This document shows positions 4,479 through 33,547 of a DNA stretch of 64,000 bases, piece after piece. Below the pieces are notes generated by a model, which made no database searches, was not told where the DNA came from, and saw only the letters and a list, made by a program, of their open reading frames with translations. The DNA comes from Gardnerella piotii (GTDB lineage: Bacteria > Actinomycetota > Actinomycetes > Actinomycetales > Bifidobacteriaceae): assembly GCF_003397585.1 (NCBI RefSeq), contig NZ_QJUV01000001.1, forward strand, positions 558,001 to 622,000. The letters are read 5' to 3'. A program made the position numbers and the translations under genes. Each line of letters starts with the position of its first letter. Positions within the stretch are counted from its first letter, which is position 1.

Positions 4479-5885
4479 ATGCAAGTAACGATGCGAATCG
4501 AGCGATATGCGGATCAAGGTAGATGCGTAGGTCATCTCGAAGGACGCGTTGTATTCGTGCGATTTGCGCTCCCTGGTGAGCTGGTTGTTGTGCGCATGGA
4601 TGAGCCGATGCGTGCAAAAGCGCACTTTTTTACTGGAGAAGTTGTAGAAGTTCTGGAGCCTAGCGCGGATCGTGTGGAGCCGCAATGGAAGCTTGCTGGC
4701 CCGCTGTCTCAGGGCGGCGGAGTTGGCGGCGCGGATTTAATTCACGTTTCTTTGCCTGGTCAGATTCGTTGGAAGGCTTCCGTAATTGCCAATCAATTCC
4801 AACGTTTAGCGCATATGGATGTTGCGGATAGCGATGTTAGTGTTGAGCGCATTCCAGGGGACGAGGAGCTTAACGGATTTAACTGGCGTACGCGCATGGA
4901 GTTGGTTGCAGATGATGAAGGGCGATTGTCTATGCGTAAGCGCGAGTCGCATGATCGCATTGCGATTGATACTATGCCACTTGCGTCGCGCGCAGTTTTG
5001 TCTGTTGCGGATTCTTTGGACTTGTGGAATCGTTCTTTTTCGCCAAATGCGCAAATTCGTCTTGCTGTTCCAGAGCCTCGGGTTGAGGGTTTGGATTTTA
5101 GTGACAGGGCTGCGCTACTTAATGCGATTGGCGAAAATTATGCGCTTATAGTAAATGATGAGTTGATTGCAGGCTCGGCATTGTTGCGCGAGCGCGTGCG
5201 CGTTGCGGTTGCTTGCGATTCGTCGCGTATGCGCACTTTTGACTACGATGTTGACGCGCGCGGTTTTTGGCAGATTCATCGCGCAGCTCCAGAGCATTTA
5301 GTGAACTACGTTTTGGGATTAGTTCGTTCTGCGCTTGGTGGTCGCACTAAGAATACGGTTTTGTGGGATTTGTATTCTGGTTCGGGTTTGTTTACGATTC
5401 CGCTTGCGACTTTGGCTAATGTTGGCGGAGATGCTGCTGGTGCTGCAGGTTTCGCTGGAGCTGCAGAGCCAGCTCGCGTGCTTAGCATTGAGGGTGCGCC
5501 GATTGCTGTAAAGAACGCAAGGCGAAACATTGGGCGCGCAGGGCTTAGCAGGGATGTTGTTGAAGCTTTGCAAGGTGATGTTGCACAAACGCTTGAATCG
5601 CAGGTGTTTAAGGCGAGTAAGTCATCTAAGATTGTGCGCCGATTTGCGCATCCAGATGTTGTTGTGTTGGATCCTCCTCGCGCTGGTGCTAAAGCTCAAG
5701 TTTGTAAGCAGATTGCGAAGTCTGGGGCTAGAAGCGTTGTGTATGTTGCTTGCGATCCTACTAGTCTTGCTCGCGATGTTGGCACGTTTAAGGAGCTTGG
5801 ATACAGCGTTCAGTCTTTGCGCGCGTTCGACATATATCCCAACACTCATCACGTGGAGACTGTCGTATTGATGTCAAGGGCTTAA
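4479..5885 (+). CDS. TRAM-domain RNA (uracil-C5) methyltransferase, TrmA/RumA family; insertion site of the island
   Basis: A 468-residue protein with an N-terminal TRAM RNA-binding domain (about residues 1-60) and a C-terminal SAM-dependent methyltransferase domain. Seen are the SAM-binding motif WDLYSGSGLFTIPLA, then LDPPRAGAK, the nucleophile cysteine in VYVACDPTSLARDV, and the terminal THHVETVVLM motif whose glutamate is the general base in this family. The Fe-S cysteine cluster of E. coli RumA is not visible. The exact target uracil in rRNA or tRNA cannot be told. The last 11 codons are repeated five more times downstream, marking this gene end as the attachment site of the accessory island. 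Confidence 0.88.
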   Translation: MQVTMRIERYADQGRCVGHLEGRVVFVRFALPGELVVVRMDEPMRAKAHFFTGEVVEVLEPSADRVEPQWKLAGPLSQGGGVGGADLIHVSLPGQIRWKASVIANQFQRLAHMDVADSDVSVERIPGDEELNGFNWRTRMELVADDEGRLSMRKRESHDRIAIDTMPLASRAVLSVADSLDLWNRSFSPNAQIRLAVPEPRVEGLDFSDRAALLNAIGENYALIVNDELIAGSALLRERVRVAVACDSSRMRTFDYDVDARGFWQIHRAAPEHLVNYVLGLVRSALGGRTKNTVLWDLYSGSGLFTIPLATLANVGGDAAGAAGFAGAAEPARVLSIEGAPIAVKNARRNIGRAGLSRDVVEALQGDVAQTLESQVFKASKSSKIVRRFAHPDVVVLDPPRAGAKAQVCKQIAKSGARSVVYVACDPTSLARDVGTFKELGYSVQSLRAFDIYPNTHHVETVVLMSRA

Positions 5886-5897
5886 TAGGTGGGTGCA
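5851..5897 (+). repeat. Att-like block, copy 1 (native gene end)
   Basis: This 47-bp block carries the last codons of the methyltransferase gene (HVETVVLMSRA), its stop and the following ataggtgggtgca. It is the reference for five further copies at 8659, 12434, 16516, 24882 and 33501. A length near 50 bp suits a serine-recombinase attachment site. Confidence 0.85.
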
Positions 5898-6293
5898 TTT
5901 TTGCCCTTATGTAGCAAGGTTTAGCGAGGGCTATCGTTAAAAGGTTTAATGCGAAGTGGCTTTAAGCTGTGTTCTCGTGATTTTTGAGCGTGATTTTGCT
6001 GTATGAGGGAACATGTCAACGCTCTGGGGTCGAGTGCACAGGATGTTAACGTACTTCGCTTGCGTTGAAAGCACACTGTGCTTTCAACTTTGAGCAAGCT
6101 CAGCGAATCGAAGTGCATTCGCGAATTATGTTATTCCTCACGGCTATTAGTAGCCGTTCGGCTGATTTGGCATGTAAAGTCCACTGGACTTTACATTTGA
6201 GCCAAATCACGCTTTGAAGGAGCTTGAAATGCGTTATGCAATTTCAAGCTCTGTCAAAGCGCCCATTCAAGTCGATTCGCCACTTTGCACCCA
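5889..6293. repeat. Long palindromic element R, copy 1 (405 bp)
   Basis: The element starts with GTGGGTGCA and ends with TGCACCCA in inverted orientation. It contains the motif gctatcgttaaaaggtttaa (about 5930-5949) and a perfect hairpin at 6064-6088 with 11-base arms gttgaaagcac/gtgctttcaac. Compared with the 283-bp copies at 12472 and 16553 it has about 120 extra bases (roughly 6131-6250). These hold more hairpins: taaagtcca/tggacttta at 6176-6194 and one with arms gcttgaaat/atttcaagc at about 6221-6249. No gene is seen in it. Confidence 0.8.
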
Positions 6294-6307
6294 GCTGGTG
6301 AAGTGGT

Positions 6308-6347
6308 AAAATATAGCTCAAAAGTTAAAATGAGGCCTGATTATTAG
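6308..6347 (+). pseudogene. Last codons of a deleted serine recombinase
   Basis: Bases 6308-6347 match the end of the intact recombinase gene (about 13757-13799), including the final codons for KMKPDY-like residues and the stop. They also share the same downstream ribosome binding site region. Everything else of the recombinase gene has been removed in this module. Confidence 0.7.
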
Positions 6348-6374
6348 TATGTGTACGAGGAGGTGTTTAAGGAA

Positions 6375-6554
6375 ATGGACAAGCTCGTTCGTTTTTGCCG
6401 TGAAGTAGTGACATTCGGCTTGACGGTTGCCTTAATCGCGATGCTGGTTGCCTTAATATGGGGTGGCACACTTGCTATTAGAATTGGTTTTACCTCTTTT
6501 GTTATTGGTGTCACAGTGATCTTGCTTAAGACTGTCCTTCGAAAGACTGATTGA
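6375..6554 (+). CDS. Small membrane protein, two helices
   Basis: A 59-residue protein with two hydrophobic helices (about residues 13-33 and 36-53) and a charged C-terminus (RKTD). The ATG at 6375 follows an aggagg site (6358-6363) with 11 bases between; an in-frame GTG at 6351 lies before the site and is rejected. It sits directly behind the recombinase remnant, in the slot where the module at 12472 carries a DUF4097-like gene. I do not recognise a family. A strong terminator follows. Confidence 0.6.
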   Translation: MDKLVRFCREVVTFGLTVALIAMLVALIWGGTLAIRIGFTSFVIGVTVILLKTVLRKTD

Positions 6555-6596
6555 ATTTTGTTTGGTTCAAGTCAATAGTTGAATATCTCACGTTGT

Positions 6597-6638
6597 GTGA
6601 CTATTACTGATTTCTGTCAGTAATAGTCACTTCTTTTT
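6597..6638 (+). terminator. Terminator after small membrane protein
   Basis: Perfect 14-base arms GTGACTATTACTGA and TCAGTAATAGTCAC with a 6-base loop, followed by ttcttttt. Confidence 0.85.
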
Positions 6639-6710
6639 ATGAATCTTAAAGTCAGGCTCAATGTCCGTCCTGTTTAGCCGGTGATTAGTTAGGGTAATCG
6701 TTAAAAGGTT

Positions 6711-7018
6711 AACAACTGTATCAATGAAAATGCACGGAAATTGCAGGATCAGGATGAGTATGCGAAAAAATATGCGAGTCTAGTGAACAGGTTTAATACT
6801 GGAGAATCAAGCCTTAAAGAAGTCAAATCTATCATTGTTGACAAGCAAGCAAGACATGATGAGGTTGAATATTTTACCGAGGATTTGAAAAACAGGACTT
6901 GTTAACAGCGTTCGATGAAAACGTCTGGCTGAGCATGGTTGACTATCTAACCGTGCATCAAGATGGAAAGGTTGAGTTTACTTTCCTTGATGGGAGCAAG
7001 ACAGAACTAAAGCGTTAA
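6711..7018 (+). pseudogene. Large serine recombinase, C-terminal remnant with frameshift
   Basis: Frame 6711 reads NENARKLQDQDEYAKKYASL and continues to a stop at about 6903. A shifted frame then continues with LLTAFDENVWLSMVDYLTVH and ends FLDGSKTELKR at 7018. Together these match the coiled-coil tail and terminal beta segment of large serine integrases (pattern FDENLW...VD..TV..DG...F.F..G.E). The catalytic domain is gone. The remnant is preceded by a copy of the atcgttaaaaggtt motif (6697-6710), so the deletion joins the island end motif to the recombinase tail. Confidence 0.75.
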
Positions 7019-7049
7019 TCTTACAGGAAATGTGGCAAGGCAAAATAAA

Positions 7050-7080
7050 AGCACATCAGCAAGTGCTGACGTGCTTTTTC
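7050..7080 (+). terminator. Terminator after recombinase remnant
   Basis: Stem agcacatcagca / tgctgacgtgct with one mismatch, then a T5 run. Confidence 0.8.
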
Positions 7081-7143
7081 TGTTAAAAGAGTTACATGTT
7101 GAGTATAATAGGATTAGTTGAGTATCGATGGAGAGAATTTCCT

Positions 7144-8034
7144 ATGAGTAATAGTAAAACTTTTAACCTATTTTTAATGGACGGCGAGGTCACAGGGCGT
7201 ATTAAATGCACGCTTCCTAGTTGGAGTGGTTTAGCTTATAAAGTTCCTAGAACTTATCTAGATAAATGTAAGGATAGAAAGCAACTCAAGCAGTGTGGCG
7301 TTTATTTTTTGTTTGGCAAGAATGACAATGACGAAGATGAAGTATACATCGGGCAAGCTGGCATCAGAAAAAACGGTGAAGGTGTTCTTTTTAGAGTTAA
7401 TGAACACCTAAAAGACGATTTTTACTTTAGTGAAGCGGTTATGTTTACGACGAGTGACAATTCGTGGGGGCCAACGGAAATAAGCTATCTAGAAAACAAA
7501 TTCACTAACCTTGCTATTGATACTGATCGTTATAAAGTAAGAAATGGAAATGATCCTAACCCTGGCAATGTGACGGAAGAAAAAGAAGCGGAGTTAGAGG
7601 TTTACGTTGATCAGTTTAAGATGATGCTTGGTGTTTTAGGCTATAAGATTTTTGTACCTTTAGTAAAAACGCAAGTATCTGTAGTTGAAGAGCAAGACGA
7701 TAATGAACTGTTATTAAGTCTTTCTCGAAAGATTAAGCGATCGCATAAAACCATAGAAGCACATTGCAAACGAACGAACGAGGGTTTTGTGGTATTGATG
7801 GGAAGCCAGATTGAAGAAACAGATTCTGATGCTATCCCAGATACCATCAAAGAGCTAAGACAGCGGTGCAAACAAAATAACGAAATTAAAGACGGCGTGC
7901 TCACCAAGAATTATTTGTTTAAGAGCCCGTCTTATGCCGCTTCATTTGTTTTAGGAATGACAACAAACGGTAAGACCGACTGGAAAATGGAGGATGGCAA
8001 ATCGCTTAAAGATTTAGAAGAAATGGAAATCTAA
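7144..8034 (+). CDS. GIY-YIG nuclease family protein with DUF4357 tail
   Basis: A 296-residue protein. A GIY-YIG-like core lies at about residues 45-110 (GVYFLFG...EVYIGQAG, then RVNEHL and a late ENKF asparagine). The C-terminal part has the DUF4357 pattern (SPSYAASFVLGMTTNGKTDWKM). Proteins with this layout are common next to mobile DNA and restriction systems; their substrate is not known. The ATG at 7144 is chosen because ggaga stands 9 bases upstream; the longer form starting at 7096 lacks a site. It is cargo of the first island module, flanked by recombinase remnants on both sides. Confidence 0.75.
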   Translation: MSNSKTFNLFLMDGEVTGRIKCTLPSWSGLAYKVPRTYLDKCKDRKQLKQCGVYFLFGKNDNDEDEVYIGQAGIRKNGEGVLFRVNEHLKDDFYFSEAVMFTTSDNSWGPTEISYLENKFTNLAIDTDRYKVRNGNDPNPGNVTEEKEAELEVYVDQFKMMLGVLGYKIFVPLVKTQVSVVEEQDDNELLLSLSRKIKRSHKTIEAHCKRTNEGFVVLMGSQIEETDSDAIPDTIKELRQRCKQNNEIKDGVLTKNYLFKSPSYAASFVLGMTTNGKTDWKMEDGKSLKDLEEMEI

Positions 8035-8057
8035 AAGCGTTATGTGTAAATAATTAA

Positions 8058-8081
8058 GGCGGTAGTAATACCGTCTTTTTT
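8058..8081 (+). terminator. Terminator after GIY-YIG/DUF4357 gene
   Basis: Arms GGCGGTA and TACCGTC followed by T6. Confidence 0.8.
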
Positions 8082-8191
8082 GATGCCTAAAAAGGTTTCA
8101 GAGTTTTAAGCTATTCAGGATTCCTATAATCCAGAGTTTAAGTGCAAGGTTTCAGATTTCAAGGCTAAGGTTTCATTGTATTCAATACGTT

Positions 8192-8455
8192 ATGAAACTA
8201 TATACGAAAACTGCCAACGAGATTGATGAGCTTAAAGGTAAGAAACAGCAGATTCTTATAGAAAAATCAGGTCAAGAAGATGCTAAAAGACGAATCAGAG
8301 AAATGGAAGATTTTCTGAAAAGTGAGCGTCACGATATTAGTGAGTATGACGAGAAGCTGGTAAGAAAGTACATCAAGAAAATAAAAGTTTACGAGGACAA
8401 GTTCAGCATAACTTTTAAATCAGAGATTAGTGTGGATATTGAAAGGGCATCGTAA
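8192..8455 (+). pseudogene. Serine recombinase tail fragment
   Basis: The 87-residue frame is an all-helical charged stretch followed by EYDEKLVRKYIKKIKVYEDK and FSITFKSEISVDI. This is the standard ending of large serine recombinases (E[YF]DE.L...I..I.VY.D.F.I.FKSG.EI.V). There is no catalytic domain and no convincing start signal, so it is read as the 3' part of a lost integrase. Its last codons and terminator recur at 22105-22210. Confidence 0.75.
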
Positions 8456-8495
8456 AAGCCGAAAGAATGTGAGCATTTGAAATGTTACAAAAGTC

Positions 8496-8526
8496 AGCCT
8501 AGGGGAATCATCTCTAGGCTGTTTTT
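8496..8526 (+). terminator. Terminator of recombinase tail
   Basis: Arms agcctag (8496-8502) and ctaggct (8514-8520), then gttttt. The same hairpin occurs at 22178. Confidence 0.8.
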
Positions 8527-8556
8527 ATGCTCAAAAACCAAGTTATCAAGCCAATC

Positions 8557-8603
8557 TTAAACTTTTTAACGATAGCTTTTTCTATCGTTAAAAAGTGCAC
8601 CCA
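8557..8603. repeat. Module right end, copy 1
   Basis: ttaaactttttaacgatagc followed by a short hairpin (gatagctttttctatc) and gTGCACCCA. Read in reverse it starts with TGGGTGCA and contains the same inner motif as the left ends, so modules have inverted ends. Confidence 0.75.
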
Positions 8604-8658
8604 GTATCCATTCCGTGCACTCAAAAAAGTGTAGCTATACTACCTGTTCTCTCAATCC

Positions 8659-8705
8659 ACGTGGAGAGTGTTGTGTTGATGTCTAGGGCTTAATAGGTGG
8701 GTGCA
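8659..8705 (+). repeat. Att-like block, copy 2
   Basis: In the methyltransferase frame it reads HVESVVLMSRA and stop: one amino acid change and several synonymous changes relative to copy 1, then ataggtgggtgca. Confidence 0.85.
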
Positions 8706-8708
8706 TTT

Positions 8709-9119
8709 TTAGGCTTTATGCTTTTGATTTCTTCTTCGTAAAAACTCTTTAACAATGATTGGAATTATAGTTGGAATACATTCAGTGGTTAAGAAATACG
8801 TAATGTATAAGTAAATCCAGCTACTACCCAATTGTTGAGGAGACTCTTGTAATATCAATAAATCAATGGCTGGTGCGATAAGCGCTATGGCAATGGTTTT
8901 ACAAACTCCTAAGTTTTCGAGTGTTTTTTGATTGACAACGATTGAGTAAAGGACAAGCGTTGTTAAACCAAATACGTGAGCTATACCGATCAATAAAACA
9001 GGTGAGTCATAAACAATTTCTGGATTAAACAATCTAAGTGAGTTAAGGATTAGTCCTAAAAGAGGCAATAATAATGAAAAAAGAAATAATCGTATAGCTT
9101 GATACACAGATTTCTTCAT
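8709..9119 (-). CDS. Four-helix membrane protein (duplicated at 24932)
   Basis: A 136-residue hydrophobic protein with about four membrane segments (residues roughly 8-28, 42-60, 73-92, 98-120) and a basic tail (RRRNQKHKA). The start follows gaggagg-type ribosome binding bases (9121-9129 on the minus strand). It points towards the att-like block, whose tip it almost touches. A paralogue with the same beginning, middle (KTLENLGVCKTIAIALIAPA) and end is at 24932-25342. I do not recognise the family; phage- or element-encoded is likely from position. Confidence 0.6.
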   Translation of the reverse strand: MKKSVYQAIRLFLFSLLLPLLGLILNSLRLFNPEIVYDSPVLLIGIAHVFGLTTLVLYSIVVNQKTLENLGVCKTIAIALIAPAIDLLILQESPQQLGSSWIYLYITYFLTTECIPTIIPIIVKEFLRRRNQKHKA

Positions 9120-9199
9120 TACAACCTCCTCAAATTTATATAGCCAAGCAGATGACTACTGTCGTAGACGGACTATTTTCACTCATTTTACGTTAATTT

Positions 9200-9410
9200 A
9201 TCTTACTTGGAAAGTTGGGATAATCATATCCGATTAAAATCTGGCGGTCATTGGCAGACAGGGTTTAAGGAGCTTGGGTAAATACGGCATTGAGTATCAT
9301 ATCGTGAAAACATATCCCAATGAGGTGAGGGTTGGATATGTGCCGAATTATAAGGCACCGAAAAAGAAGAATGGTGTTAATCAAGCGTGGTTTTCGGCTA
9401 GCTGGTAAGC
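9200..9410 (+). pseudogene. Fragment resembling the end of a secreted nuclease toxin
   Basis: The frame reads SGGHWQTGFKELG, then a stop/frameshift, and continues YPNEVRVGYVPNYKAPKKK and QAWFSASW. The second copy at 25440-25630 is open throughout. The pattern (V)RVGxVPNxKxxxKxxGxxQxWF resembles the end of EndoU-like polymorphic toxin domains, but I cannot confirm this. There is no start or secretion domain, so it is a displaced fragment. Confidence 0.35.
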
Positions 9411-9610
9411 AAGGGCATGGTCTTTTTGTTACAACGTCTAGGTTTTCGCAGAAAGCTAAGGATTATGCTGACAATCATCATATTATTTTGGTTGATGGTG
9501 TGAAACTTGCAAATCTTATGATTAAACATAATTTTTGTGTTTCAACAAGAAAAACGTTTGAGATTAAAACGATTGATACTGATGCTTTGCTTGAATATCA
9601 AGATGAATAG
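9402..9610 (+). pseudogene. C-terminal fragment of an Mrr-like restriction protein
   Basis: The frame reads GKQGHGLFVTTSRFSQKAKDY, then IILVDGVKLANLMIKHN and ends EIKTIDTDALLEYQDE. This matches the end of Mrr-type methyl-directed restriction proteins (GVF.TTS.FS..A..YA...IVLIDG..L..LM). The nuclease core upstream is missing and is replaced by the toxin-like fragment, overlapping by a few bases. The same fusion occurs at 25622-25831. Confidence 0.55.
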
Positions 9611-9839
9611 TGTTTTTGTGTAAGTTTTGTGACTTGATTTTGTTGATTTTGAGTTTGTTACTGAGTTTTTTTAGATTTTAGATATGAATTTGCTATTTTA
9701 TCAGTTATAAATTATAAATTATCGATTTTGCCATTAAATTTCACTTATAAGCGATGTGTGCGGTGAAAAGTCTTGGTTTGTTTTTTGTTTTACTTTTGGC
9801 TTTGGTTGTGGATATTGGTTAATCGTACATTTTTTACGA

Positions 9840-10118
9840 TTACAGGTTGAAGAGGTCTGCGTGGCTACCAGTATCGATAAGTGTGAGGGTGAGAATATCA
9901 TCCTCTAGCAGATAAACAAGTAACCAGTCTGGCTTGATGTGGCATTCGTGAAAACCGTTGAATTTTCCTTTGAGTATATGGTCTTTGTATTTAGGGTCAA
10001 GTGGAATACATTGTCTTAGATTATCTACTACTTCATCCAAAAGAGAAAGATTGATTCCTTGTTTAGCCATACGCTTATAGCTTTTCTTATAAGCATTCGT
10101 GAACTTAACGTTGTACAT
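9840..10118 (-). CDS. yafQ: YafQ-type mRNA-cleaving toxin
   Basis: A 92-residue RelE-superfamily toxin of the YafQ branch: start MYNVKFTNAYKKSYKRMAKQG, the core DPKYKDHILKGKFNGFHECHI, then DWLLVYLL and the ending LIDTGSHADLF with the catalytic-type histidine. YafQ cuts mRNA on the ribosome and stops growth when its antitoxin is lost. The ATG overlaps the antitoxin stop by one base (TGATG), the usual coupling. It lies in island module two. Confidence 0.88.
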   Translation of the reverse strand: MYNVKFTNAYKKSYKRMAKQGINLSLLDEVVDNLRQCIPLDPKYKDHILKGKFNGFHECHIKPDWLLVYLLEDDILTLTLIDTGSHADLFNL

Positions 10119-10393
10119 CAGTCTTGCAACAGCGCTTTCTTAAGGTCTTCCATAGAAGAATACGATGGTACGTTAGGGTCTCTGGAAATTCTTTTGGCTT
10201 CTTGCATAGCAGCCAGTGTTTCAGTATTAAACTTTGGGATTTCTACTTTAAAAGGAAGGCCGCCGTGTAAAACGCATTGGCGTAAGAAGATGTTTACGGC
10301 ACTTGACATATCGATGCCGAGTTCGCTAAACAGTTCATTTGCTTCTGTTTTTACATTACTATCGATACGAATTTGAGTAGGACTTGTTGCCAT
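10118..10393 (-). CDS. dinJ: DinJ/RelB-type antitoxin
   Basis: A 91-residue antitoxin with an N-terminal ribbon-helix-helix (IRIDSNVKTEANELFSELGI...MSSAVNIFLRQCV) and a C-terminal part that would wrap the toxin. It normally represses its own promoter together with the toxin. The start is preceded by aaggagc on the minus strand. The promoter and a partly palindromic operator can be seen just upstream. Confidence 0.87.
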   Translation of the reverse strand: MATSPTQIRIDSNVKTEANELFSELGIDMSSAVNIFLRQCVLHGGLPFKVEIPKFNTETLAAMQEAKRISRDPNVPSYSSMEDLKKALLQD

Positions 10394-10416
10394 AGTATTA
10401 GCTCCTTTTTAAGACG

Positions 10417-10445
10417 ATTATGATACAATCAGTATACGTTGTCAA
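10417..10445 (-). promoter_or_regulatory. Promoter/operator of the dinJ-yafQ pair
   Basis: On the minus strand TTGACA (10445-10440) and CATAAT (10422-10417) are 17 bases apart. The spacer gtatactgattgtat has partial dyad symmetry, a fair candidate for the DinJ operator. Between this and the gene at 10714 nothing else is seen. Confidence 0.65.
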
Positions 10446-10713
10446 GCAATAAAGATGGAATAGTAATATTTTGCACTCAATGATTAGTGTTAATGTTAAA
10501 AGAGTAAAAAATTGCAATGGGAAATTACAATTTGAAGTACATCATGCAATTTGTTGATTTTTATGATAAAAACGCTGTTCGACTTTAATATTTCAGAGAA
10601 AAACGGATGTAGAGTTATGCTATATCAACAGATGAAGATGATTGTATTGGATTTTGTTAAGTCGTATTTTAGTTGTATACGAATAATGGGAAACTGCTCA
10701 TTAGGAGAAAACG

Positions 10714-11511
10714 ATGGATAGATTTTCAGAGAAAAGTCTTCTTTCACTTGGAGATTATTATGTGTATGGACTTATCGATCCACGTAGTAAGCGAATCTTC
10801 TATATTGGGAAAGGCGCAGGAAACAGAGTATTTGAACACGAGAAAAAAATCCTGGGTAGTTCTGAAAGTGAGAACCTGAAACTTAAGACAATATCAGAAA
10901 TTAAGGCTGCTGGACTTGAAGTTGAAAAGATTATCATTAATTCAAACCTTACTGAAGAAGAGGCGTTTGCGTCAGAGGCGTCTTTAATCAATGCATTTAA
11001 TTACGTCAGTGACACAGGCCTCACTAATATTGTTGCCGGGCATCATTCTGCAGAGGCATTATCGGTTGATGAATACGAAAGAATAAATGGCGCGGTCGAA
11101 CTTGAAGAAAAAGACATAAAGCACAGAATTCTTGTTATAAAAATAAATAGGCTTTATCGGAGATGCATGGATGAGAATGTATTGTATGATGCTGTTCGTG
11201 GTATCTGGAGAGTATCAAAAGAAAAAGTAAAAACCGTTGAATATGTTTTTGGTGTATACAATTCTTTGATTGTGGCTGTATATAAGCCGTCAAAGTGGTT
11301 TGTTTGCAAAGAGGCAAAGGACAGACTTCCAAGGCAGGATATCATTCTTGAGCCAAAAAAGGCGAATAGATTATTTTTTGTGGATGATAGATATGAACAA
11401 GGATTTACACTTGATGAAAATGAAGCTTTTTATCTAGGGAAATCTATAATCAGATTGAAATTGAATCAGTCGGCGCAGAATCCGATTACATACCTAAATC
11501 CGCAGAAGTGA
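10714..11511 (+). CDS. GIY-YIG domain protein, LEM-3-like
   Basis: A 265-residue protein with a GIY-YIG fold at residues 12-110: YYVYGLIDPRSKRIFYIGKG, then RVFEHE and, further on, the glutamate-bearing EEAFASEASLINAF and the asparagine in LTNIVAG. This resembles the LEM-3-like branch of GIY-YIG nucleases. The C-terminal half has no domain I recognise. A clear site (aggag, 10701-10705) precedes the ATG. It probably cleaves DNA or RNA, but its biological job is unknown. It is cargo between a TA pair and a toxin remnant. Confidence 0.75.
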   Translation: MDRFSEKSLLSLGDYYVYGLIDPRSKRIFYIGKGAGNRVFEHEKKILGSSESENLKLKTISEIKAAGLEVEKIIINSNLTEEEAFASEASLINAFNYVSDTGLTNIVAGHHSAEALSVDEYERINGAVELEEKDIKHRILVIKINRLYRRCMDENVLYDAVRGIWRVSKEKVKTVEYVFGVYNSLIVAVYKPSKWFVCKEAKDRLPRQDIILEPKKANRLFFVDDRYEQGFTLDENEAFYLGKSIIRLKLNQSAQNPITYLNPQK

Positions 11512-11656: not shown

Positions 11657-11690
11657 ATATCATGCCTAAAATCAAGCTATCAAGCCAATC

Positions 11691-26500: not shown

Positions 26501-26545
26501 CATTTGTTTATGTATGGAAATAAAATCCTGTAGATTATCGGATGA

Positions 26546-26680
26546 TTTTTAGCTATAGTTATTTTTGTAGGCTGTATATCTGCATTCTTTGTCCATAATT
26601 TACATCCCGTCAGTTTTATTAGACTCAAAGATGATTTGTACTACGAGATGAATGAATATTGGGCAGATGATAGTGAATAA
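26546..26680 (+). pseudogene. Membrane protein tail fragment
   Basis: A 44-codon stretch after a stop: FLAIVIFVGCISAFFVHNLH, then LKDDLYYEMNEYWADDSE. One helix and an acidic end but no start codon. It is the only coding-like stretch in the 26448-26750 gap. Confidence 0.3.
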
Positions 26681-26750
26681 CAGAGTGAAGATTGAACATG
26701 ATAATCGTAACTGCAATTAGGTAAAGATTAAGTTGTAGGTGGAGGTATAA

Positions 26751-27305: not shown

Positions 27306-27419
27306 CAACTCTCTGTTTGCAATTGTCTTGGATGTTTACACTCCTACAATATTTCCAATATTAACTTTCATTCTGCAATGAGCATTAAGGCTATTTTGCT
27401 GTCGAGTGATTATTAATTT

Positions 27420-27493
27420 AGTTGTTTATGTTTTGGGTAACAAATCGGTGTAGAAATTGTAAAAAAGTTCCATACACTGTTTGATTTCTCATG
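27420..27493. repeat. 74-bp non-coding repeat, copy 1
   Basis: Matches 37002-37075 with about 80 percent identity by eye (gttgtttatgttttgggtaa, gtaaaaaagttcc, tttgatttctcatg). What follows differs in the two places. Confidence 0.65.
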
Positions 27494-27621
27494 GTAATGG
27501 CTTGTTGGTTATTTCAGAAAATAAGGTTCCTGAGTTTAAGAAGTTGCTTGTTGAGTATTATGAAGGTGAAGATTCGCAGGTGATTGCTTCGTTTATGAGG
27601 GAATATTGTTGGAAGCATTAA
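27484..27621 (+). pseudogene. C-terminal gene fragment (possibly Fic-like)
   Basis: Reads ISHGNGLLVISENKVPEFKK, LLVEYYEGEDSQVIASFMRE and YCWKH then stop. It has the look of a real protein end with a V.EFKKLLVEYYE..D pattern, reminiscent of Fic-family tails, but identification is weak. There is no start codon. Confidence 0.4.
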
Positions 27622-27861
27622 ACGCTCACGATTGTGTTGGTTCTTATGGCTCTGCGAATCTTGCTATTTATGAAAGAGTATAGTTTGCTAGTAAATGAAG
27701 AGATTAGTGTCGATAATCTAGACAAATTAATAAAAAAAAATAATATATTTATTAAGATTATTACAGTAATCAGAGTGAATGGTAGATCTTGTTTGCTTAA
27801 TAATCTGTTTTATAATCATTTGATACAGAGTCGTGTTAACGAAAAGGAGGCTAGTAGTGTT

Positions 27862-28296
27862 ATGAGAAGTAAAACTATTTTTTGTAAAACCATTTTTCAA
27901 AGTTGTCTTGTTATGCTTCTGCTGCTAGGCACTCTCTTTTCTCTTGCTGGATGTGCTGATGATGATGAGAAGGCGGCGCTTGCGTCGTATCATTGGGAAA
28001 CAGTAGCGGTGTCTCAAGAAGAGTTTCGTATACCAGAAAACTATATGAATAAGGATGAATTGTATCTCTTTGTGTCACGAGATATTCTGGATTCTCATTA
28101 TGATTTGTCTAAAGTCACTCTTGGAGATAAGCGTATTAAGTTAGTTGACTCATCGTTCAATTTACCTGGTCCAGGGCTTAAAGCTTTATTTTTGGTTGGA
28201 AAATTTGATTTAAAAGATAAGTCAAGTTCTGATGTTCTTAAAGTACCAGGACTTAATAAAGCAGGTAATGTTGCTATAGGTTATAAGAAGAAATAG
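27862..28296 (+). CDS. Small lipoprotein of unknown function
   Basis: A 144-residue lipoprotein: signal peptide with lipobox LAGC (about residues 29-32), followed by an acidic stretch (ADDDEKAA) and a compact domain. The ATG at 27862 follows aaggagg (27844-27850) with 11 bases between; the frame is open upstream to 27634, but that part overlaps repeated fragment sequence and is not taken as coding. Family not recognised. A second lipoprotein lies 0.6 kb upstream. Confidence 0.65.
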   Translation: MRSKTIFCKTIFQSCLVMLLLLGTLFSLAGCADDDEKAALASYHWETVAVSQEEFRIPENYMNKDELYLFVSRDILDSHYDLSKVTLGDKRIKLVDSSFNLPGPGLKALFLVGKFDLKDKSSSDVLKVPGLNKAGNVAIGYKKK

Positions 28297-28735
28297 TAGT
28301 ATTTTGCAAATGTTAAACAAATGTTTTGTGATTGCTTATATTTGAGTTTTTGACGTAATGCTCATATAATTTTCCACGTAAAGCACATTTAAGTTTATGA
28401 GGTGTTGCGCTATGACTGCCCAAATGATCGCTAGTCTTAAGAACGGTTTGAAAGGCATATAAAAGCACATAAAACAGCTTAAGATACATATTCTTTAGCA
28501 GTATTAAACACGCATTGCGCATGATGTTTTGTCATTATGTTTGCACATGCGCGCTAGTTTTTGCACGTTTTTTGCATGTTTTTGCGCGTTCTTATCGTTC
28601 TTGTAAGCAAGCGTTATCTTTTCTTATCTGACTAACTGATTTTCATTGTTGAAATTTATTCAATAACAGTAAGAATTAAGGTTTAATAACAGTAAAAATT
28701 AAGCTTTAATAACACGTAAGAACGAAGTAATAATA
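28297..28735. other. Gene-free stretch before the ABC-2 operon
   Basis: No gene is supported. A low-complexity part (28550-28620) repeats ttttgcacgttttttgcatg-like bases. About 28655-28725 holds three imperfect 24-bp repeats (aataacagtaagaattaagg). These lie where the promoter of the following operon should be. Confidence 0.5.
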
Positions 28736-29845
28736 ATGAATAATAATATAGAAAATGCAACTAATAGTCGCGATAACAATAATAAGCAGTCAGCTAGCAA
28801 CTTAATATTGCGTATTGATAATGTAACAAGATCTTATTCTCGTGGGTTCGGTCGTAAGAAGACAACTCGCCAAGTTTTACATAACGTATCTTTTGATATT
28901 CATTCTGGTGAAATATTTTGCTTGCTTGGCCCTAATGGTGCAGGTAAAACAACTACCGTGAAAATTGTTGGCACGTTGTTAGCTCCTGATAGTGGTAGTG
29001 TTCGTATTGCCAATATTGATGCTGTGAGTAATCCTCGAGAAGCACGTAAGCACGTGTCGTTACTTCTTGGAGGTGAGCGAGGATTTTATCAAAAGTTAAG
29101 TGCATTAGATAATCTTCGTTATTTTGCTGATCTTTCTGCTGTTCCATATAGGGAGCAGGGAAAGCGTATTCACGATGCTCTTGAGCAAGTTGATTTACTT
29201 GATAAAGCTCATGATGCTGTTCAAACTTTTTCAAGGGGAATGTGGCAGCGGTTACATATTGCTCGATCGCTGGTTGCTAGAACGGATCTTATGCTTTTAG
29301 ATGAGCCTACCACTGGTTTGGATCCTGAAAATGCTAGGAAAGTACGTGAAATTATTCATGCTTTACGAGATCAAGGAATAGCGATTTTGCTAACTACGCA
29401 TGAGATGAGTGAGGCTGAAAAATTAGCTGATACTGTTGCTGTAATAAATCACGGTAATATTATCGCTCAGGGAAGTGTGCAGCAGTTGGCTTCTTTGCAG
29501 CATATTGATCATGTAACAATGTACGCGTATGAAGGTGAAGTATCAAGTGGAACTCCTAGTGTTAAGGAAGAATTGCAAAAACTTGATGGAGTGTTGTGGT
29601 GTGATGTTTTTGAATCACACGGAGTATTAAATATTACTATCGCGTGGAGTAAAACATTATCTCAAGAACGAAATATTAAAATTCCTGTTGATGGGATTAC
29701 GCGTTTAGGTGATCGCGCTGCAAGTTTGGAAGAAACGTATCTTGCTATTGTGCAAAATGATAATATTTCTGCGTCAAATACTTCTACTTCTACTTCTGCT
29801 GTTACGCCGTCTTCTTCGCCGTCCTCACTCCCATTAAGTAAGTAG
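28736..29845 (+). CDS. ABC-2 type exporter ATPase
   Basis: A 369-residue ATPase with an asparagine-rich N-terminal extension (residues 1-22). Then Walker A LLGPNGAGKTTT, Q-loop LLLGGERGFYQ, signature FSRGMWQRLHIARSL, Walker B LMLLDEPTTGLD and H-loop LLTTHEMSEAE. A C-terminal regulatory domain and a serine/threonine/proline-rich tail (SNTSTSTSAVTPSSSPSS) follow. It drives the two permeases downstream. The ribosome binding site is weak, so the start is not certain. The substrate may be a drug, polysaccharide or peptide. Confidence 0.83.
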   Translation: MNNNIENATNSRDNNNKQSASNLILRIDNVTRSYSRGFGRKKTTRQVLHNVSFDIHSGEIFCLLGPNGAGKTTTVKIVGTLLAPDSGSVRIANIDAVSNPREARKHVSLLLGGERGFYQKLSALDNLRYFADLSAVPYREQGKRIHDALEQVDLLDKAHDAVQTFSRGMWQRLHIARSLVARTDLMLLDEPTTGLDPENARKVREIIHALRDQGIAILLTTHEMSEAEKLADTVAVINHGNIIAQGSVQQLASLQHIDHVTMYAYEGEVSSGTPSVKEELQKLDGVLWCDVFESHGVLNITIAWSKTLSQERNIKIPVDGITRLGDRAASLEETYLAIVQNDNISASNTSTSTSAVTPSSSPSSLPLSK

Positions 29846-29855
29846 GAGGCTTAAT

Positions 29856-30635
29856 ATGAATACTTCTACTCATTCATACGCTTCTGTGATTCGTGGCTTA
29901 TGGTTTCAGCTTAAAAGCTTAGCGAAAACAACGTTTTTCTTGCAAAATGCGATACTTGCTCCAGTATGTTTTGCGTTGATGAAAATTGTTGCCTACTATG
30001 GTTTTTCTCATGATTGCGCTAATTGTCTTAATAATATTTGGGTTGATTCTTCTATAGCTGGATTATGGTCTGCTACAACTACTGCTGTTGGAATTATTGG
30101 ATACCAGCGTTATTTAGGAACATTGCAATATTTAACTTTAAGTGTTATCTCACCTTCTGCAGTGTTTCTTCCTATTGTAGGATCCGCAGCTTTACTTGGC
30201 TGTATTGGTATGCCGCTTGCGATTATTACCGTTGCTGTTTTCTGCCATGGGTTCTTTATGATAACATTCACGCAGTTAGTTGGATACTTACTTTCTATGC
30301 TTGCTTGCGTAGCTTCTGCTGCATTATTATCTGGAATTTTTGTATTATGCCGTAAAGCTACAGTTTATGAAGGTTTGATTTTAATTCCTGTATGGATGCT
30401 TTGTGGAATAGTGATTCCTGTAGAATCAATGCCATTGCCAGCTCGCGTTATTGCGTTTATTCATCCGCTTACGTCTGCAGTGTGGGTGGCTCATGCGCAA
30501 GCGTTTAATGCTACTACTGTGTTAGCGATTGTGTTATGTGTTGTATTATCCAGCGTTTTGCTTGTTATTGCAGGTTTTATGTTACGTCATGCTATTCGAC
30601 TTGCAACGCTTAATGGAAGTTTGAACATAATATGA
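29856..30635 (+). CDS. ABC-2 type permease 1
   Basis: A 259-residue membrane protein with about six helices (LWSATTTAVGIIGYQRYLGTLQYLTLS between helices 2 and 3 is typical of ABC-2 permeases). The start lies 10 bases after the ATPase stop, with taggagg before the ATG. The end overlaps the next gene by four bases (ATGA), so the three genes form one operon. Confidence 0.82.
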   Translation: MNTSTHSYASVIRGLWFQLKSLAKTTFFLQNAILAPVCFALMKIVAYYGFSHDCANCLNNIWVDSSIAGLWSATTTAVGIIGYQRYLGTLQYLTLSVISPSAVFLPIVGSAALLGCIGMPLAIITVAVFCHGFFMITFTQLVGYLLSMLACVASAALLSGIFVLCRKATVYEGLILIPVWMLCGIVIPVESMPLPARVIAFIHPLTSAVWVAHAQAFNATTVLAIVLCVVLSSVLLVIAGFMLRHAIRLATLNGSLNII

Positions 30636-31570
30636 TACGAAATAATAATCAGGTTGAAACTATGCGAAATAAAATTATTCAAAATAGTAAGTACGCTGAA
30701 TTGCATCAATATAATCAATATTCTCAGTATGGTCACGTAAGCGTTTTATCTAGTATACGAACTGGTGCAAGAGTGAGTATACAGAGTATACCTAGCTTAA
30801 ATAGTTGGAATACTGCTGTTATCCGTATGATTGTTGAGCCTCTTTTATCCACGTTCTTATACGTTTTTCTAGCTGGAGCTGTAAGCGGAGGATTCAATGG
30901 AGCAGCTAGTTATGCGACTAGCGCGGGTTTTAATCATAGTTTGATTGCATCAACTCTTGCTGCTGTTATGGGTGCGTGTTCTATTTCCACAAGTATGACG
31001 GTGTCAGAAGCACTAGCATGGGATCGTTTTGAAGGCACAACACCATTCGTGCTTACAAGCGCAAAAGTTGCATTACCATTATGGTTTGGTCGTATTATTG
31101 CGCTCGTTACTATTTCTTTAGTGAGTGATGCTGTGACTTTGTTCATAACAATGCTTGTAGTAAGCCCGAGTGCTTTCTTGATGATTAATATGAGTGCGTT
31201 GATGCTGTTGTTTCTTATTGTTCCTGTTGCTTCTACGGGATTTGGTATTGCTATAGCTGCTATAAGCATGATGATGAATGATGTTTATACTATTTCTAAC
31301 GCGCTTAGTGCAATACTTCCTATTGCTTGTGGTGTGATTGCTCCGATTAGCGTATTTCCTAAGATGATGCAATACGTGTTATATGTGATTCCAGTAACTC
31401 ATGTTACTCAAGCATCTCGTAGTATAGTTGATGGTTCTGTAAATGTTGGTGTATCGCTACTTGTGATTCTTGTTGTTGGCATGTTATGGGCAATTGTTGG
31501 TGTAATAATATGGAATGTTGGCGTGGCGGTTCAACAGCGTAAAGGTACTTTAACAAATATAGGGTTTTAG
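30632..31570 (+). CDS. ABC-2 type permease 2
   Basis: A 312-residue permease with a 70-residue hydrophilic start followed by six helices (PLLSTFLYVFLAGAVSGGF and VIPVTHVTQASRSIVDGSVN are typical). It would form a heterodimeric channel with permease 1. An internal ATG at 30662 is possible, but the ATGA overlap favours 30632. Confidence 0.8.
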   Translation: MIRNNNQVETMRNKIIQNSKYAELHQYNQYSQYGHVSVLSSIRTGARVSIQSIPSLNSWNTAVIRMIVEPLLSTFLYVFLAGAVSGGFNGAASYATSAGFNHSLIASTLAAVMGACSISTSMTVSEALAWDRFEGTTPFVLTSAKVALPLWFGRIIALVTISLVSDAVTLFITMLVVSPSAFLMINMSALMLLFLIVPVASTGFGIAIAAISMMMNDVYTISNALSAILPIACGVIAPISVFPKMMQYVLYVIPVTHVTQASRSIVDGSVNVGVSLLVILVVGMLWAIVGVIIWNVGVAVQQRKGTLTNIGF

Positions 31571-31974
31571 CTGATAAATATGGGATTTAGTTAATTATAT
31601 AAAGATTAAATTCGCGTATGGATAGTGGGTGTAAGACTAGTGGCATGTTGATTATTGCGTAAGATTGTTCAGCAAGCTATTAAGCCAATCTTAAACCTTT
31701 TAACGATAGCTTTTCCTATCGTTAAAAAGTGCACCCACTTTTTGTTTGTATATTTGGCTGTATCATACATTATTTTTCTAGTAGAAGCTGTGCTTTATGG
31801 AGAAGAAAAATTTTATGGATGCGAAAAGCCTGCACTTATTAGAAAAATAAAAAAATTTTTCTTTAATAAAGCTTGTATGTGTGGTTTTTTTTAAATAGTA
31901 ATACTATTAAAGCTAAACAGACTATTATGGACTCTAATTTTAATAGAATCACATATTAAGAATAAGGGGAACTT
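31571..31974. other. Module border, no complete gene
   Basis: Contains the module right end at 31691-31738. A frame without start after it (about 31741-31894) encodes a membrane helix (LFVYLAVSYIIFLVEAVLYG) and a basic, cysteine-bearing tail ending at a TAA; probably a gene fragment. Confidence 0.5.
31691..31738. repeat. Module right end, copy 3 (best preserved)
   Basis: ttaaaccttttaacgatagc, hairpin gatagcttttcctatc, then gTGCACCCAC. The reverse complement begins GTGGGTGCAC, matching the left ends of elements at 5889, 12472 and 16553, and contains the 20 bases gctatcgttaaaaggtttaa found inside them. Confidence 0.8.
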
Positions 31975-32481
31975 ATGAAATTAATTAGACCAGATAGTAA
32001 ATATATCCAAGGTTATATAGAAGCAAATGAAGAAGATGAAATTTTTAGGCCGAATGCAGAAAGACGTTTTAGAAATTATGAGACAATTATAGAGAGTTCT
32101 TATAATATTGAACATGGTATAAATTTGCCTGAAAATTATGTTAAAGCTACTACATTTTGGCTGATAGATAATGAAAAATTTATTGGTGAAATTAATATTA
32201 GGCATGAATTAAATTCTTTTTTAATTAACTATGGTGGTCACATAGGGTACGAGATTAGACAGTCTGAATGTATGAAGGGCTATGGAACAAGAATGCTTTC
32301 TATGGCACTTACATATTGTAAAGAGACTTTGAATCTACATAAGGTTTTGATTACATGCGATGATGACAATATCGGATCGATAAAAGTTATAGAAAATAAT
32401 GGTGGAGTTTTGGAAAACAAAGTGAAAAATAGCTTATCAAGAGGAAACGTTACAACAAGAAGGTATTGGATTAATATATAG
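31975..32481 (+). CDS. GNAT-family N-acetyltransferase
   Basis: A 168-residue acetyltransferase with FIGEINIRHELN, HIGYEIRQSE and the acetyl-CoA loop MKGYGTRMLSMAL, ending with CDDDNIGSIKVIENNGG, the usual RimJ/RimL-like pattern. It transfers an acetyl group to an unknown amine. AT-rich composition suggests transfer from Firmicutes. The aagggg site is 6 bases from the ATG. The next gene starts 7 bases after its stop. Confidence 0.85.
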   Translation: MKLIRPDSKYIQGYIEANEEDEIFRPNAERRFRNYETIIESSYNIEHGINLPENYVKATTFWLIDNEKFIGEINIRHELNSFLINYGGHIGYEIRQSECMKGYGTRMLSMALTYCKETLNLHKVLITCDDDNIGSIKVIENNGGVLENKVKNSLSRGNVTTRRYWINI

Positions 32482-32488
32482 GAGAAAG

Positions 32489-33451
32489 ATGATGAGTGAG
32501 ACGAATGTAAGGCCAGTGCTTTTCAAGCATGCTTTTTGGGGTTATGTGATTACAGAAACTGTTGCTGGTATTTGCACGCTTATTATTGCGCTGCTTGTAC
32601 AGCAGTTCGTAGGCCACCGCGTACTAGGTTGGGAAACTGTGGTCATACTCGCGTTGAGTGTTGTGGTGTTTTCGCTTCTAAGTGCAGCGTATCTTCAGTG
32701 GAATAGGCATCGTAGACCAGATGACAGGTCTGGCGATTTACTCAGAGGAATCATCGATTTTGTGCTCAGGCTGCTGGTGACTTCTGGTATTGCTTCATTG
32801 CTTGTTTCTGATACTACGCTGCTAAGCATTATTATTGGTGCAGCGATTACTAGTGTGTTGCTGTTTGTTTTTGAAAAGCCTTGGCAGCCAGGTATGACGG
32901 ATGCGCAATTACAGGAAGCTTCAAAGAAATCGGTTGAGCTCGGTGTTCAAATGCTTGAAGAAGAGCGCGTAAAGCGCGCCGAGGCGAGAAACATAATTGC
33001 ATTACAGCATGCGAGCGAAGGTAAAACAGACACTCCTAGAGGTACGTCTCTAACATTCTCCTCGTTAATTGTTGCGAATATTCTGATTGAAGCAGTATGC
33101 GATGTTGCAACATTTTTGCTTGCACTGATACTGCAATGGTGGATGCTGGGTAGTATCGTTGGCTGGAGCACGCTACTCGTCATATTCTTGGGCAATATGC
33201 TATTTTCTTGCGCGGCGGCTGCGGTTATGGTTCTGATGGGCGCATTGAAGGCTGATCAACAGAAATTCCTAACAAAAAGTTGGCCTTTCTTAGTTATTGT
33301 TGTACTGCTTCGACTGCTTATCTTCGGTGTTCTCGCTTGGCTGCTTACACCGAGCTTAGTATGGGTAAGCGTAGTCGTTGGCGTTGTGCTTACCGATATT
33401 GTTATTGTTATAAAGCATCATCCATGGAGAAGAACCGCAGTATCTGCATAA
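32489..33451 (+). CDS. Membrane protein with internal duplication
   Basis: A 320-residue protein of two similar halves, each with about four helices: residues 8-130 and 195-310 (compare ITETVAGICTLIIALLVQQF with LIEAVCDVATFLLALILQWW). A charged helix (EEERVKRAEARNIIALQHA) links the halves. The start may be the ATG at 32489 or 32492, with ggaga just upstream. Composition is closer to the core genes than to the GNAT gene before it. Function unknown. Confidence 0.65.
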   Translation: MMSETNVRPVLFKHAFWGYVITETVAGICTLIIALLVQQFVGHRVLGWETVVILALSVVVFSLLSAAYLQWNRHRRPDDRSGDLLRGIIDFVLRLLVTSGIASLLVSDTTLLSIIIGAAITSVLLFVFEKPWQPGMTDAQLQEASKKSVELGVQMLEEERVKRAEARNIIALQHASEGKTDTPRGTSLTFSSLIVANILIEAVCDVATFLLALILQWWMLGSIVGWSTLLVIFLGNMLFSCAAAAVMVLMGALKADQQKFLTKSWPFLVIVVLLRLLIFGVLAWLLTPSLVWVSVVVGVVLTDIVIVIKHHPWRRTAVSA

Positions 33452-33500
33452 AAGATTTTATAAGACTGTTTTCTTCTCTTTTGAGCAAAAGGTTCTACGT

Positions 33501-33547
33501 ACGTTGAGAGTGTCGTGTTGGTGTCTAGGGCTGATTAGGTGGGTGCA
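33501..33547 (+). repeat. Att-like block, copy 6 (most divergent, last copy)
   Basis: Reads YVESVVLVSRAD and stop in the methyltransferase frame, then gtgggtgca. No further copy is found downstream, so it may mark the far end of the island. Confidence 0.8.

What the first reader, a model, noticed from the sequence alone, without database searches (positions are those of the whole stretch)
5851..33547. Cassette island built at the 3' end of an RNA methyltransferase gene, with six att-like blocks
The last 11 codons and following bases of the TrmA/RumA-like gene recur at 8659, 12434, 16516, 24882 and 33501, always in the same orientation. They cut the 28-kb region into five modules with different cargo (nucleases, TA pairs, antibiotic and cadmium resistance, bacteriocin export, ABC exporter). 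The rumA-type gene end is a known integration site for some serine-integrase elements in Firmicutes. What stands out here is the serial array of short modules, with one intact short recombinase and several recombinase tails. I infer repeated insertion at one attB, giving a growing chain.
Basis: partly seen in the sequence, partly recalled or inferred. Interest (0 to 1): 0.9.

Follow-up and report, generated by a model that had tools for sequence, protein, structure and literature searches.

The report
Prophage-built gene-cassette array in Gardnerella
Next to one housekeeping gene, this vaginal bacterium carries a row of small gene packages (drug and metal resistance, anti-phage defence, toxin-antitoxin pairs) whose ends match the insertion site of a known Gardnerella virus, and near-identical packages recur in other species of the group.

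Summary
Six same-orientation copies of a ~48-bp block (last 11 codons of a RumA/RlmD-type gene plus a short 3' sequence) lie at 5850-33548; a search with up to 3 mismatches found none elsewhere in the genome. A seventh junction at 22984 carries a different rumA tail, so there are six modules, not five.

The blocks belong to a temperate-phage attachment system. Gardnerella prophages of the vB_Gva_AB1 type carry a triplet of serine recombinases whose last gene stops 203-227 bp before the same crossover point (14 contigs tabulated). All four combinations of left arm (rumA or phage) and right tail (native or imported) occur among 12 related genomes, switching at a CA dinucleotide, as site-specific recombination predicts.

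Two module right ends keep phage-integrase remnants; two left ends keep a short recombinase or its stump. An Lsa-type ABC-F cassette is 99.1% identical on average between eight genomes whose rumA is 91.4% identical, and sits in different contexts. A Clostridiales MAG has the CadD module start exactly at its own rumA end.

Serial accretion at rum is known in streptococci. New here are the long array of recombinase-poor cassettes, donor-recording tails, and the link to phage AB1. Excision was not tested.

The parts
4479..5885 (+). rumA/rlmD-type RNA uracil methyltransferase; its 3' end is the attachment site
   Evidence: PF05958 50.9 bits; RlmD/RumA profiles are the best NCBIfam hits, below their curated cut-offs
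5850..5898 (+). block 1: rumA left arm | imported tail HVETVVLMSRA* (attL type)
8658..8706 (+). block 2: phage arm P1 | tail HVESVVLMSRA*
12433..12481 (+). block 3: P1 | tail HVETVVLMSRA*
16514..16562 (+). block 4: other flank (P2) | frame-shifted tail
   Evidence: near-identical DNA ends a complete rumA-type gene in a Clostridiales MAG
24881..24929 (+). block 5: P1 | tail HVENVVLMSRA*
   Evidence: missed by the stricter P1 pattern
33500..33548 (+). block 6: most diverged copy, other flank (P3)
5850..8657 (+). module 1: stump of short recombinase, 67-aa ORF, PDC-S14 defence candidate (7096-8034), C-terminal remnant of phage integrase (8192-8455)
8658..12432 (+). module 2: Mrr-like fragment, RelB/YafQ pair, PD-T4-3 (GIY-YIG) defence gene 10714-11511, ParE-type toxin and partner ORF at right end
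   Evidence: the toxin's identical copy at 22304-22621 was scanned
12433..16513 (+). module 3: short serine recombinase, DUF4097, 94-aa protein, Lsa-type ABC-F
   Evidence: related cassette in 7 other genomes
16514..22983 (+). module 4: bacteriocin-associated-type membrane protein (62 bits, cut-off 189) and ABC ATPase, RelB gene with partner ORF, IS3 fragment, integrase gene end, ParE-type toxin and partner ORF
22984..24880 (+). module 5: CadD cadmium transporter 23292-23918, 106-nt scrap like the end of the phage terminase gene (23956-24061), RelB/ParE-type pair
   Evidence: first 911 nt 95.5% identical in a Clostridiales MAG
24881..33499 (+). module 6: repeat of the module 2 start, RelB, ABC exporter 28736-31570, GNAT 31975-32481, 320-aa ORF 32489-33451
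12837..13799 (+). 320-aa short serine recombinase (resolvase + recombinase domains only)
   Evidence: PF00239, PF07508; the only PF07508 match in G000; 98.5% DNA identity to phage AB1
8192..8455 (+). C-terminal 87 aa of the phage integrase that lies nearest attP
22109..22208 (+). 3' end of the same integrase gene
6309..6374 (+). 3' stump of the short recombinase gene with its downstream bases
   Evidence: (family D14)
5931..5945 (+). arm motif CTATCGTTAAAAGGT, 81 nt after the crossover (also after block 3, and with one mismatch after block 4)

Best explanation
The region is a tandem array of att-bounded cassettes at the 3' end of rumA (rlmD type). A family of temperate Gardnerella phages (AB1 type) with a triplet of serine recombinases integrates by crossing over at a CA dinucleotide about 11 codons before the rumA stop. 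The phage arm (P1) and the rumA arm exchange right halves, so the phage brings its own rumA tail, which keeps the gene in frame, and pushes the old tail to the far end. Because the new tail re-creates the target, further elements can enter, giving a chain. Several modules here are such elements with the phage core deleted, keeping left end, cargo and right end; others are non-autonomous cassettes moved in trans or together with a prophage. Shown: the junction structure, all four arm/tail combinations, phage remnants at module ends, interspecies transfer of one cassette, and the same boundary in a MAG of another phylum. Inferred: that the triplet catalyses it, that cassettes move in trans, and the order of insertion.
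For: All four arm|tail combinations occur in 12 related genomes: rumA|native 3 junctions (3 genomes), rumA|block 8 (8), P1|native 8 (5), P1|block 16 (9); 41 of 43 readable junctions begin with CA. In the 14 viral contigs tabulated (of 24 loci; one is G061's own contig) the phage integrase stop lies 203-227 bp before the crossover; in the window the remnant's stop lies 202 bp before it. Integrase remnant and short recombinase match phage AB1 at 91% and 98.5%. Fetched stretches of G031, G044, G061 and G092 match large parts of AB1. The Lsa cassette lies between two junctions in 8 of 12 genomes at 98.6-99.7% identity versus 89.6-94.1% for rumA, in 28 of 28 pairs, means 99.1 and 91.4. The CadD module start is 95.5% identical over 911 nt in a Clostridiales MAG and begins at the same base, at the end of a complete rumA-type gene. 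Tails evolved in part as coding sequence: 17 of 40 distinct changes synonymous against 22 of 99 possible, p = 1.3e-4.
Against: G000 has no full-length integrase: its only PF07508 match is the short recombinase, so the array may be immobile now. Some junctions (P2, P3, P5 flanks) are not the canonical P1 arm, and P5 looks like a deletion joint. Four of 32 readable P1 junctions carry tails that do not read as RumA ends. Counted by cells, 74 tail changes are synonymous and 91 not. Homologous ends of about 280 bp also allow ordinary recombination between modules. In G009, G046 and G069 blocks lie far from rumA, and I did not explain how they got there. AB1 was assembled by reference-guided concatenation, and its attP region contains two N. 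One genome per species was held, so gain and loss within a species were not seen.
Confidence: 0.82

Rival explanations
1. The short recombinase (314-320 aa) is the cassettes' own integrase: a small self-moving family, each unit being att, recombinase, cargo, att, independent of the phage triplet.
For: The gene starts soon after the att block (window 404 bp, G031 322 bp, Javan105 307 bp) with three kinds of following cargo: ORF52/206-type, 214-aa protein, DUF4097 with Lsa. Its two domains match nearly whole profiles. A 314-aa form is also kept in a Streptococcus constellatus phage at 71.8% identity. It is the only such recombinase in G000.
Against: It lacks the C-terminal half that large serine integrases have. 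In the window only module 3 has it and module 1 a stump; copies of the Lsa cassette without it are also shared between species.
Confidence: 0.15
2. Modules were shuffled by homologous recombination between shared ends, not by site-specific recombination.
For: Shared ends of 283 nt at 89-94% identity and no full integrase in G000.
Against: Unrelated DNA meets on both sides of one dinucleotide, in four combinations, and the boundary is the same in a MAG of another phylum.
Confidence: 0.1
3. Modules derive mainly from conjugative or mobilizable elements (CIMEs in the strict sense) that use rumA, with the phage only one user of the site.
For: The CadD module matches a Clostridiales MAG and CadD is common on plasmids of Enterococcus at lower identity; streptococcal ICEs use rumA.
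Against: Recombinase remnants in the window match the phage. The one 54-kb stretch read between two junctions (G031) is a prophage. The 15.5-kb G014 module at rumA, which I first took for a mobilizable element, encodes its own serine integrase, a phage capsid protein and a D5-type replication protein; I lowered this rival from 0.15 to 0.10 for that reason.
Confidence: 0.1

Closest known systems
Tandem ICE/prophage accretion at the rum locus in Streptococcus suis (PMC5053989, passages read)
   Same: Same target gene 3' end; tandem elements with several att sites; resistance cargo; phages of the Phi-m46.1 group at rum.
   Different: There tandem elements typically have three att sites. Here seven junctions and six short modules in an actinobacterium, mostly without recombinase, with imported in-frame gene tails.
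Streptococcal ICEs with a single rumA-specific serine integrase, or with serine integrase triplets (PMC4701971, passages read)
   Same: Exchange of the rumA 3' part on integration; triplet organisation.
   Different: There rumA is the target of single integrases, the exchange changes the frame, and triplets target mutT, traG or hsdM; here a triplet lies beside a rumA-targeting site and the tail keeps the gene in frame.
CIME accretion arrays of Streptococcus salivarius (PMC7563491, passages read)
   Same: Chains of att-bounded decayed elements at a gene 3' end; cadmium resistance genes, mostly within CIMEs.
   Different: There derived from ICEs or IMEs at rpmG, rpsI, fda or rplL, two or three elements long; here with phage remnants and longer.
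Gardnerella phage vB_Gva_AB1 (MW387018; paper PMC7996455 read in full)
   Same: Integrase triplet, short recombinase, an internal att block.
   Different: The paper's text names no attachment site and does not mention the block or any array.
SCC cassettes of staphylococci (recalled)
   Same: Serial cassettes of resistance genes at the 3' end of an rRNA methyltransferase gene, direct repeats made of gene tail, serine recombinases.
   Different: Other target gene; recombinases score far below the Ccr cut-offs.

Membership tests
Tandem accretion array at rumA (streptococcal type) | Insertion at the 3' end of rumA/rlmD | tested here: met
Tandem accretion array at rumA (streptococcal type) | More than two att sites in the same orientation bounding different cargo | tested here: met
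Tandem accretion array at rumA (streptococcal type) | Excision or transfer of the units | not testable with these tools
   only sequence available
CIME (strict: decayed ICE/IME) | Derived from a conjugative or mobilizable element | tested here: inconclusive
   recombinase remnants match a phage; the origin of modules without remnants is open
CIME (strict: decayed ICE/IME) | att sites kept, recombinase genes lost | tested here: met
   module 3 keeps only the short recombinase
Staphylococcal cassette chromosome (SCC) | Ccr recombinase by curated model | tested here: not met
   best CcrB score 79 bits (short recombinase) and 139 bits (phage integrase) against a cut-off of 900
Staphylococcal cassette chromosome (SCC) | Insertion in rlmH (recalled as the SCC target) | tested here: not met
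   the target is a RumA/RlmD-type gene
AB1-type prophage (whole) | Structural and replication genes present | tested here: not met
   window-AB1 DNA matches are ends, the block, IS3 pieces and one 106-nt scrap of the terminase gene; they cover 761 bases of AB1 1-30000 and 1,713 of 30000-50268
AB1-type prophage (derived ends) | Phage left and right ends next to att | tested here: met

The most novel reading that the evidence does not exclude
The array is a serine-recombinase counterpart of an integron: 2-4 kb cassettes, each led by (or once led by) a 314-320 aa short serine recombinase with fixed arm sites around attP, swap cargo behind the recombinase gene and move between Firmicutes and Actinobacteria inside phage particles. 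The captured rumA tail of each unit is a barcode of its former host.
Probability: 0.15. Interest if true: 0.85.

Novelty: new variant of a known kind. Interest (0 to 1): 0.62.

Why it matters
It gives a concrete, testable route by which resistance and defence genes spread between Gardnerella species: a prophage attachment site used as a parking row for cassettes. The Lsa-type gene is of interest because Lsa proteins are known (recalled) to protect ribosomes from lincosamides, and clindamycin is a conventional treatment of bacterial vaginosis (PMC7996455); resistance itself was not tested. The imported rumA tails are natural records of donors, one of them matched in a Clostridiales MAG. The published genome of the induced phage AB1 holds a recombinase gene and ORF next to an att block, so public reads could test whether cassettes are packaged.

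Tried and rejected
Chance repeats: rejected (none in 100 shuffles; 6 of 6 genome copies lie here). tRNA-linked island: ARAGORN found no tRNA or tmRNA gene in the window. SCC membership: rejected on Ccr scores. Conjugative element as the main source: I looked for transfer genes upstream of the triplet; the ORFs there read as phage genes, four of them scanned from three genomes are terminase, capsid, tape-measure and lysin, and the stretches match AB1. 'Decayed long integrase' for the 320-aa recombinase: weakened, because a 314-aa form is kept in Streptococcus constellatus phage Javan105. P5-type junctions as functional att sites: rejected, since in the window the same flank runs on without a block (23996) while elsewhere it is fused to the right half of a block. 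Plasmid search with the short recombinase: 227 records, none at 60% identity or more. Plasmid search with the CadD module start: 144 records, none covering 80% of the query. The search for phi-SsuFJNP3 returned no useful paper. The listing showed no paper on lsa in Gardnerella by title or abstract start; I opened none of its nine papers. The listing (10 of 33 shown) showed none on a rumA array in Gardnerella; one search returned none. A strict P1 pattern missed window block 5 (24881), so those counts are slightly low; two junctions that read N were set aside. The arrangement of the G092 prophage, which matches AB1 on two contigs, was not resolved.
Full report
Observation. The six blocks exist as described, in one orientation. 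A 31-base pattern finds them and nothing in 100 shuffles, and the whole genome holds no further copy at up to 3 mismatches in the 21-bp right half. Five of the six read, in the rumA frame, as a RumA C-terminus: HVETVVLMSRA* (twice), HVESVVLMSRA*, HVENVVLMSRA*, YVESVVLVSRAD; the one at 16514 is frame-shifted. At 22984 the flank that precedes blocks 2, 3 and 5 is followed instead by CATTTAGAATC..., which reads HLESICLLSRK*.

Distribution. Of 101 genomes of the GTDB genus searched (own genome plus 100 others), 12 have a block match with up to 3 mismatches. They are the same 12 whose RumA is at least 93% identical over the matched part; every other RumA match in the list is at most 72%, partial ones included. 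I fetched stretches from all 12. Array length, order and cargo differ from genome to genome. Three genomes (G009, G031, G095) have another rumA ending, H(A/T)ESVA(L/F)L(Y/C)KS*, which I call native; one (G044) reads N there. In G009, G046 and G069 there are also blocks far from rumA on the same contig; elsewhere contig breaks hide the context.

Four-way test. If P1 and the rumA arm exchange right halves at one point, all four combinations should exist. They do: rumA|native 3 junctions in 3 genomes, rumA|block 8 in 8, P1|native 8 in 5, P1|block 16 in 9. Of 43 readable junctions, 41 begin with CA and two, both with P1, with CG; two more read N. Eight P1 junctions carry other tails, among them HLESICLLSRK*, QVETVALLTRE*, HVEAIVLLSKL and HVESVCLMSRA*; the other four do not read as a RumA tail.

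The phage. A family search found 15 PF07508 matches in 8 of 12 genomes; 7 genomes have one above the cut-off, and G000 has only the short recombinase. Four genomes (G031, G044, G061, G092) have a large-small-large group of recombinase ORFs, in G044 partly masked by N. Fetched stretches of these four match large parts of AB1 at mean identities of 84-98% per stretch where they match; four ORFs scanned from G031, G061 and G092 are terminase, capsid, tape-measure and GH25 lysin. The last integrase of G092 is 98.3% identical to that of the induced Gardnerella phage vB_Gva_AB1. In the 14 viral contigs that I tabulated (of 24 loci; one is the G061 contig itself) its stop codon lies 203-227 bp before the crossover; the remnant in module 1 stops 202 bp before it. 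In G031, 53,960 bp holding a prophage lie between two junctions. In the window, 8201-8570 matches the end of that integrase gene and its downstream region in AB1 at 91%, 12741-13775 matches AB1 at 98.5%, and 23956-24061 matches the end of the AB1 terminase gene at 81%.

Cassette in a phage genome. AB1 has a block at record position about 40950, after the short recombinase and ORF52. This order (integrase, short recombinase, ORF, block, phage left part) is what joint excision of cassette plus prophage from a locus like that of G031 would give. Limits: the record was concatenated with a bacterial reference as guide, then checked by PCR and Sanger sequencing according to the paper, and it has two N where attP should be. 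In S. constellatus phage Javan105 a 314-aa recombinase and a 206-aa ORF are likewise bounded by two rumA-tail blocks, at 1888 and 4015, the second after a flank very similar to that of AB1.

Transfer. The cassette DUF4097, 94-aa protein, Lsa-type ABC-F lies between two junctions in 8 of 12 genomes; two more hold parts of it (G095, G022). In G046 the copy is interrupted near its 3' end. Its core (window 13826-16100; 1,902-2,278 nt aligned) is 98.6-99.7% identical in 28 of 28 genome pairs, against 89.6-94.1% for rumA. It is first after rumA in G063, G069 and G046, second in G014, third in the window, directly after a prophage right end in G061, and far from rumA in G009. The start of the form that still has the recombinase gene also follows a prophage right end in an IMG/VR contig. 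The Lsa assignment passes the curated cut-off (800.8 bits against 750).

Foreign tail. The 26-base core of HLESICLLSRK occurs on two contigs of one MAG, labelled a Clostridiales bacterium. One place is the end of a complete 401-aa gene with the tRNA/rRNA uracil-5-methyltransferase domain. The other contig overlaps it by 141 identical bases and continues at 95.5% identity over 911 nt to window 22984-23894, encoding CadD. Upstream of the CA the MAG has its own gene and the window has P1. So the same element starts at the same point of rumA in what is labelled another phylum, with the usual doubt about MAG binning.

Tails are coding. Among 46 distinct tails (86 places, with some genomes seen twice), 17 of 40 distinct changes are synonymous against 22 of 99 possible (Fisher p = 1.3e-4). 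The reading is that tails served as the end of a working gene for some time. Counted by cells the picture is weaker: 74 synonymous, 91 not; 61 variant cells lie at second codon positions, 41 of them at two sites.

Arms. CTATCGTTAAAAGGT (up to 2 mismatches) starts 80-81 nt after the crossover in 47 of 55 distinct right arms (46 of them at 81) and, exactly, 81 nt after it in both Javan105 blocks. The left arms carry it inverted, starting 96-98 nt before the crossover, in 42 of 51 (34 at 97), and direct at 75-77 nt in 45 of 51 (41 at 76). Background windows from the same loci matched in 2.0-2.2%; those loci include the arms themselves. In the Gardnerella arms this may be plain common descent; in Streptococcus the match sits between diverged stretches. 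Serine integrases usually need no arm sites (recalled), so this deserves a test.

Cargo. PDC-S14 candidate and PD-T4-3, an Mrr-like fragment, several RelB, YafQ and ParE-type genes, CadD, ABC transporters. Two copies of a ParE-type toxin and its partner ORF, 99% identical over 766 nt, sit next to two P1 junctions.

Known or new. Tandem accretion at rum with phages and ICEs is published for streptococci, tail exchange between rumA and integrase likewise, and CIME chains at other genes; in each case I read the passages returned. For Gardnerella, a three-term search returned no paper, a listing of 10 of 33 papers showed none on this by title or abstract start, and a term search of the Gardnerella prophage paper PMC5115800 found no rumA, recombinase or attachment. 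I judge it a new variant of a known kind.

Noticed in passing
window 11670-12434 and 22220-22985: A ParE-type toxin and partner ORF with flank are duplicated at 99% identity over 766 nt, each copy directly before a P1 junction; such pairs at cassette ends recall integron arrays.
   Followed up: partly
window 5931-5945 and equivalents; L174 (Javan105): Motif CTATCGTTAAAAGGT starts 81 nt after the crossover in most Gardnerella right arms and in both Streptococcus blocks, with inverted and direct copies in the left arm.
   Followed up: partly
window 23956-24061: P5 flank: resembles the end of the phage terminase gene and runs on without a block here, but in other genomes it is fused to the right half of a block, a deletion joint rather than recombination.
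   Followed up: partly
L064 1763-17293 (G014): A 15.5-kb module directly at rumA with its own serine integrase, a phage capsid protein, a D5-type replication protein, an Msr-type ABC-F gene (781 bits, cut-off 680) and an MFS transporter: it looks like a capsid-coding phage satellite with resistance-type cargo.
   Followed up: partly
L073 (G069), L079 (G009), L070 (G046); also L077 and L111 (G092): Arrays or single blocks away from rumA, or on other contigs; in G046 and G092 a rumA-like tail precedes a 404-aa ORF that looks like an AAA-type ATPase, in G092 after a topoisomerase-like ORF (both by eye).
   Followed up: partly
L169 9024-9027 (AB1 record about 39024): The published AB1 genome has two N where attP should lie; the join there may not be real.
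   Followed up: partly
window 21593-22112: IS3-type transposase fragment 98% identical to the IS3 piece at the start of the AB1 record, next to an integrase gene end.
   Followed up: no
window 6056-6123, 12639-12698, 16720-16787, 38932-38999: A short palindromic repeat inside the cassette left ends also occurs outside the array, with a further inverted copy of neighbouring sequence nearby (38712-38805).
   Followed up: no
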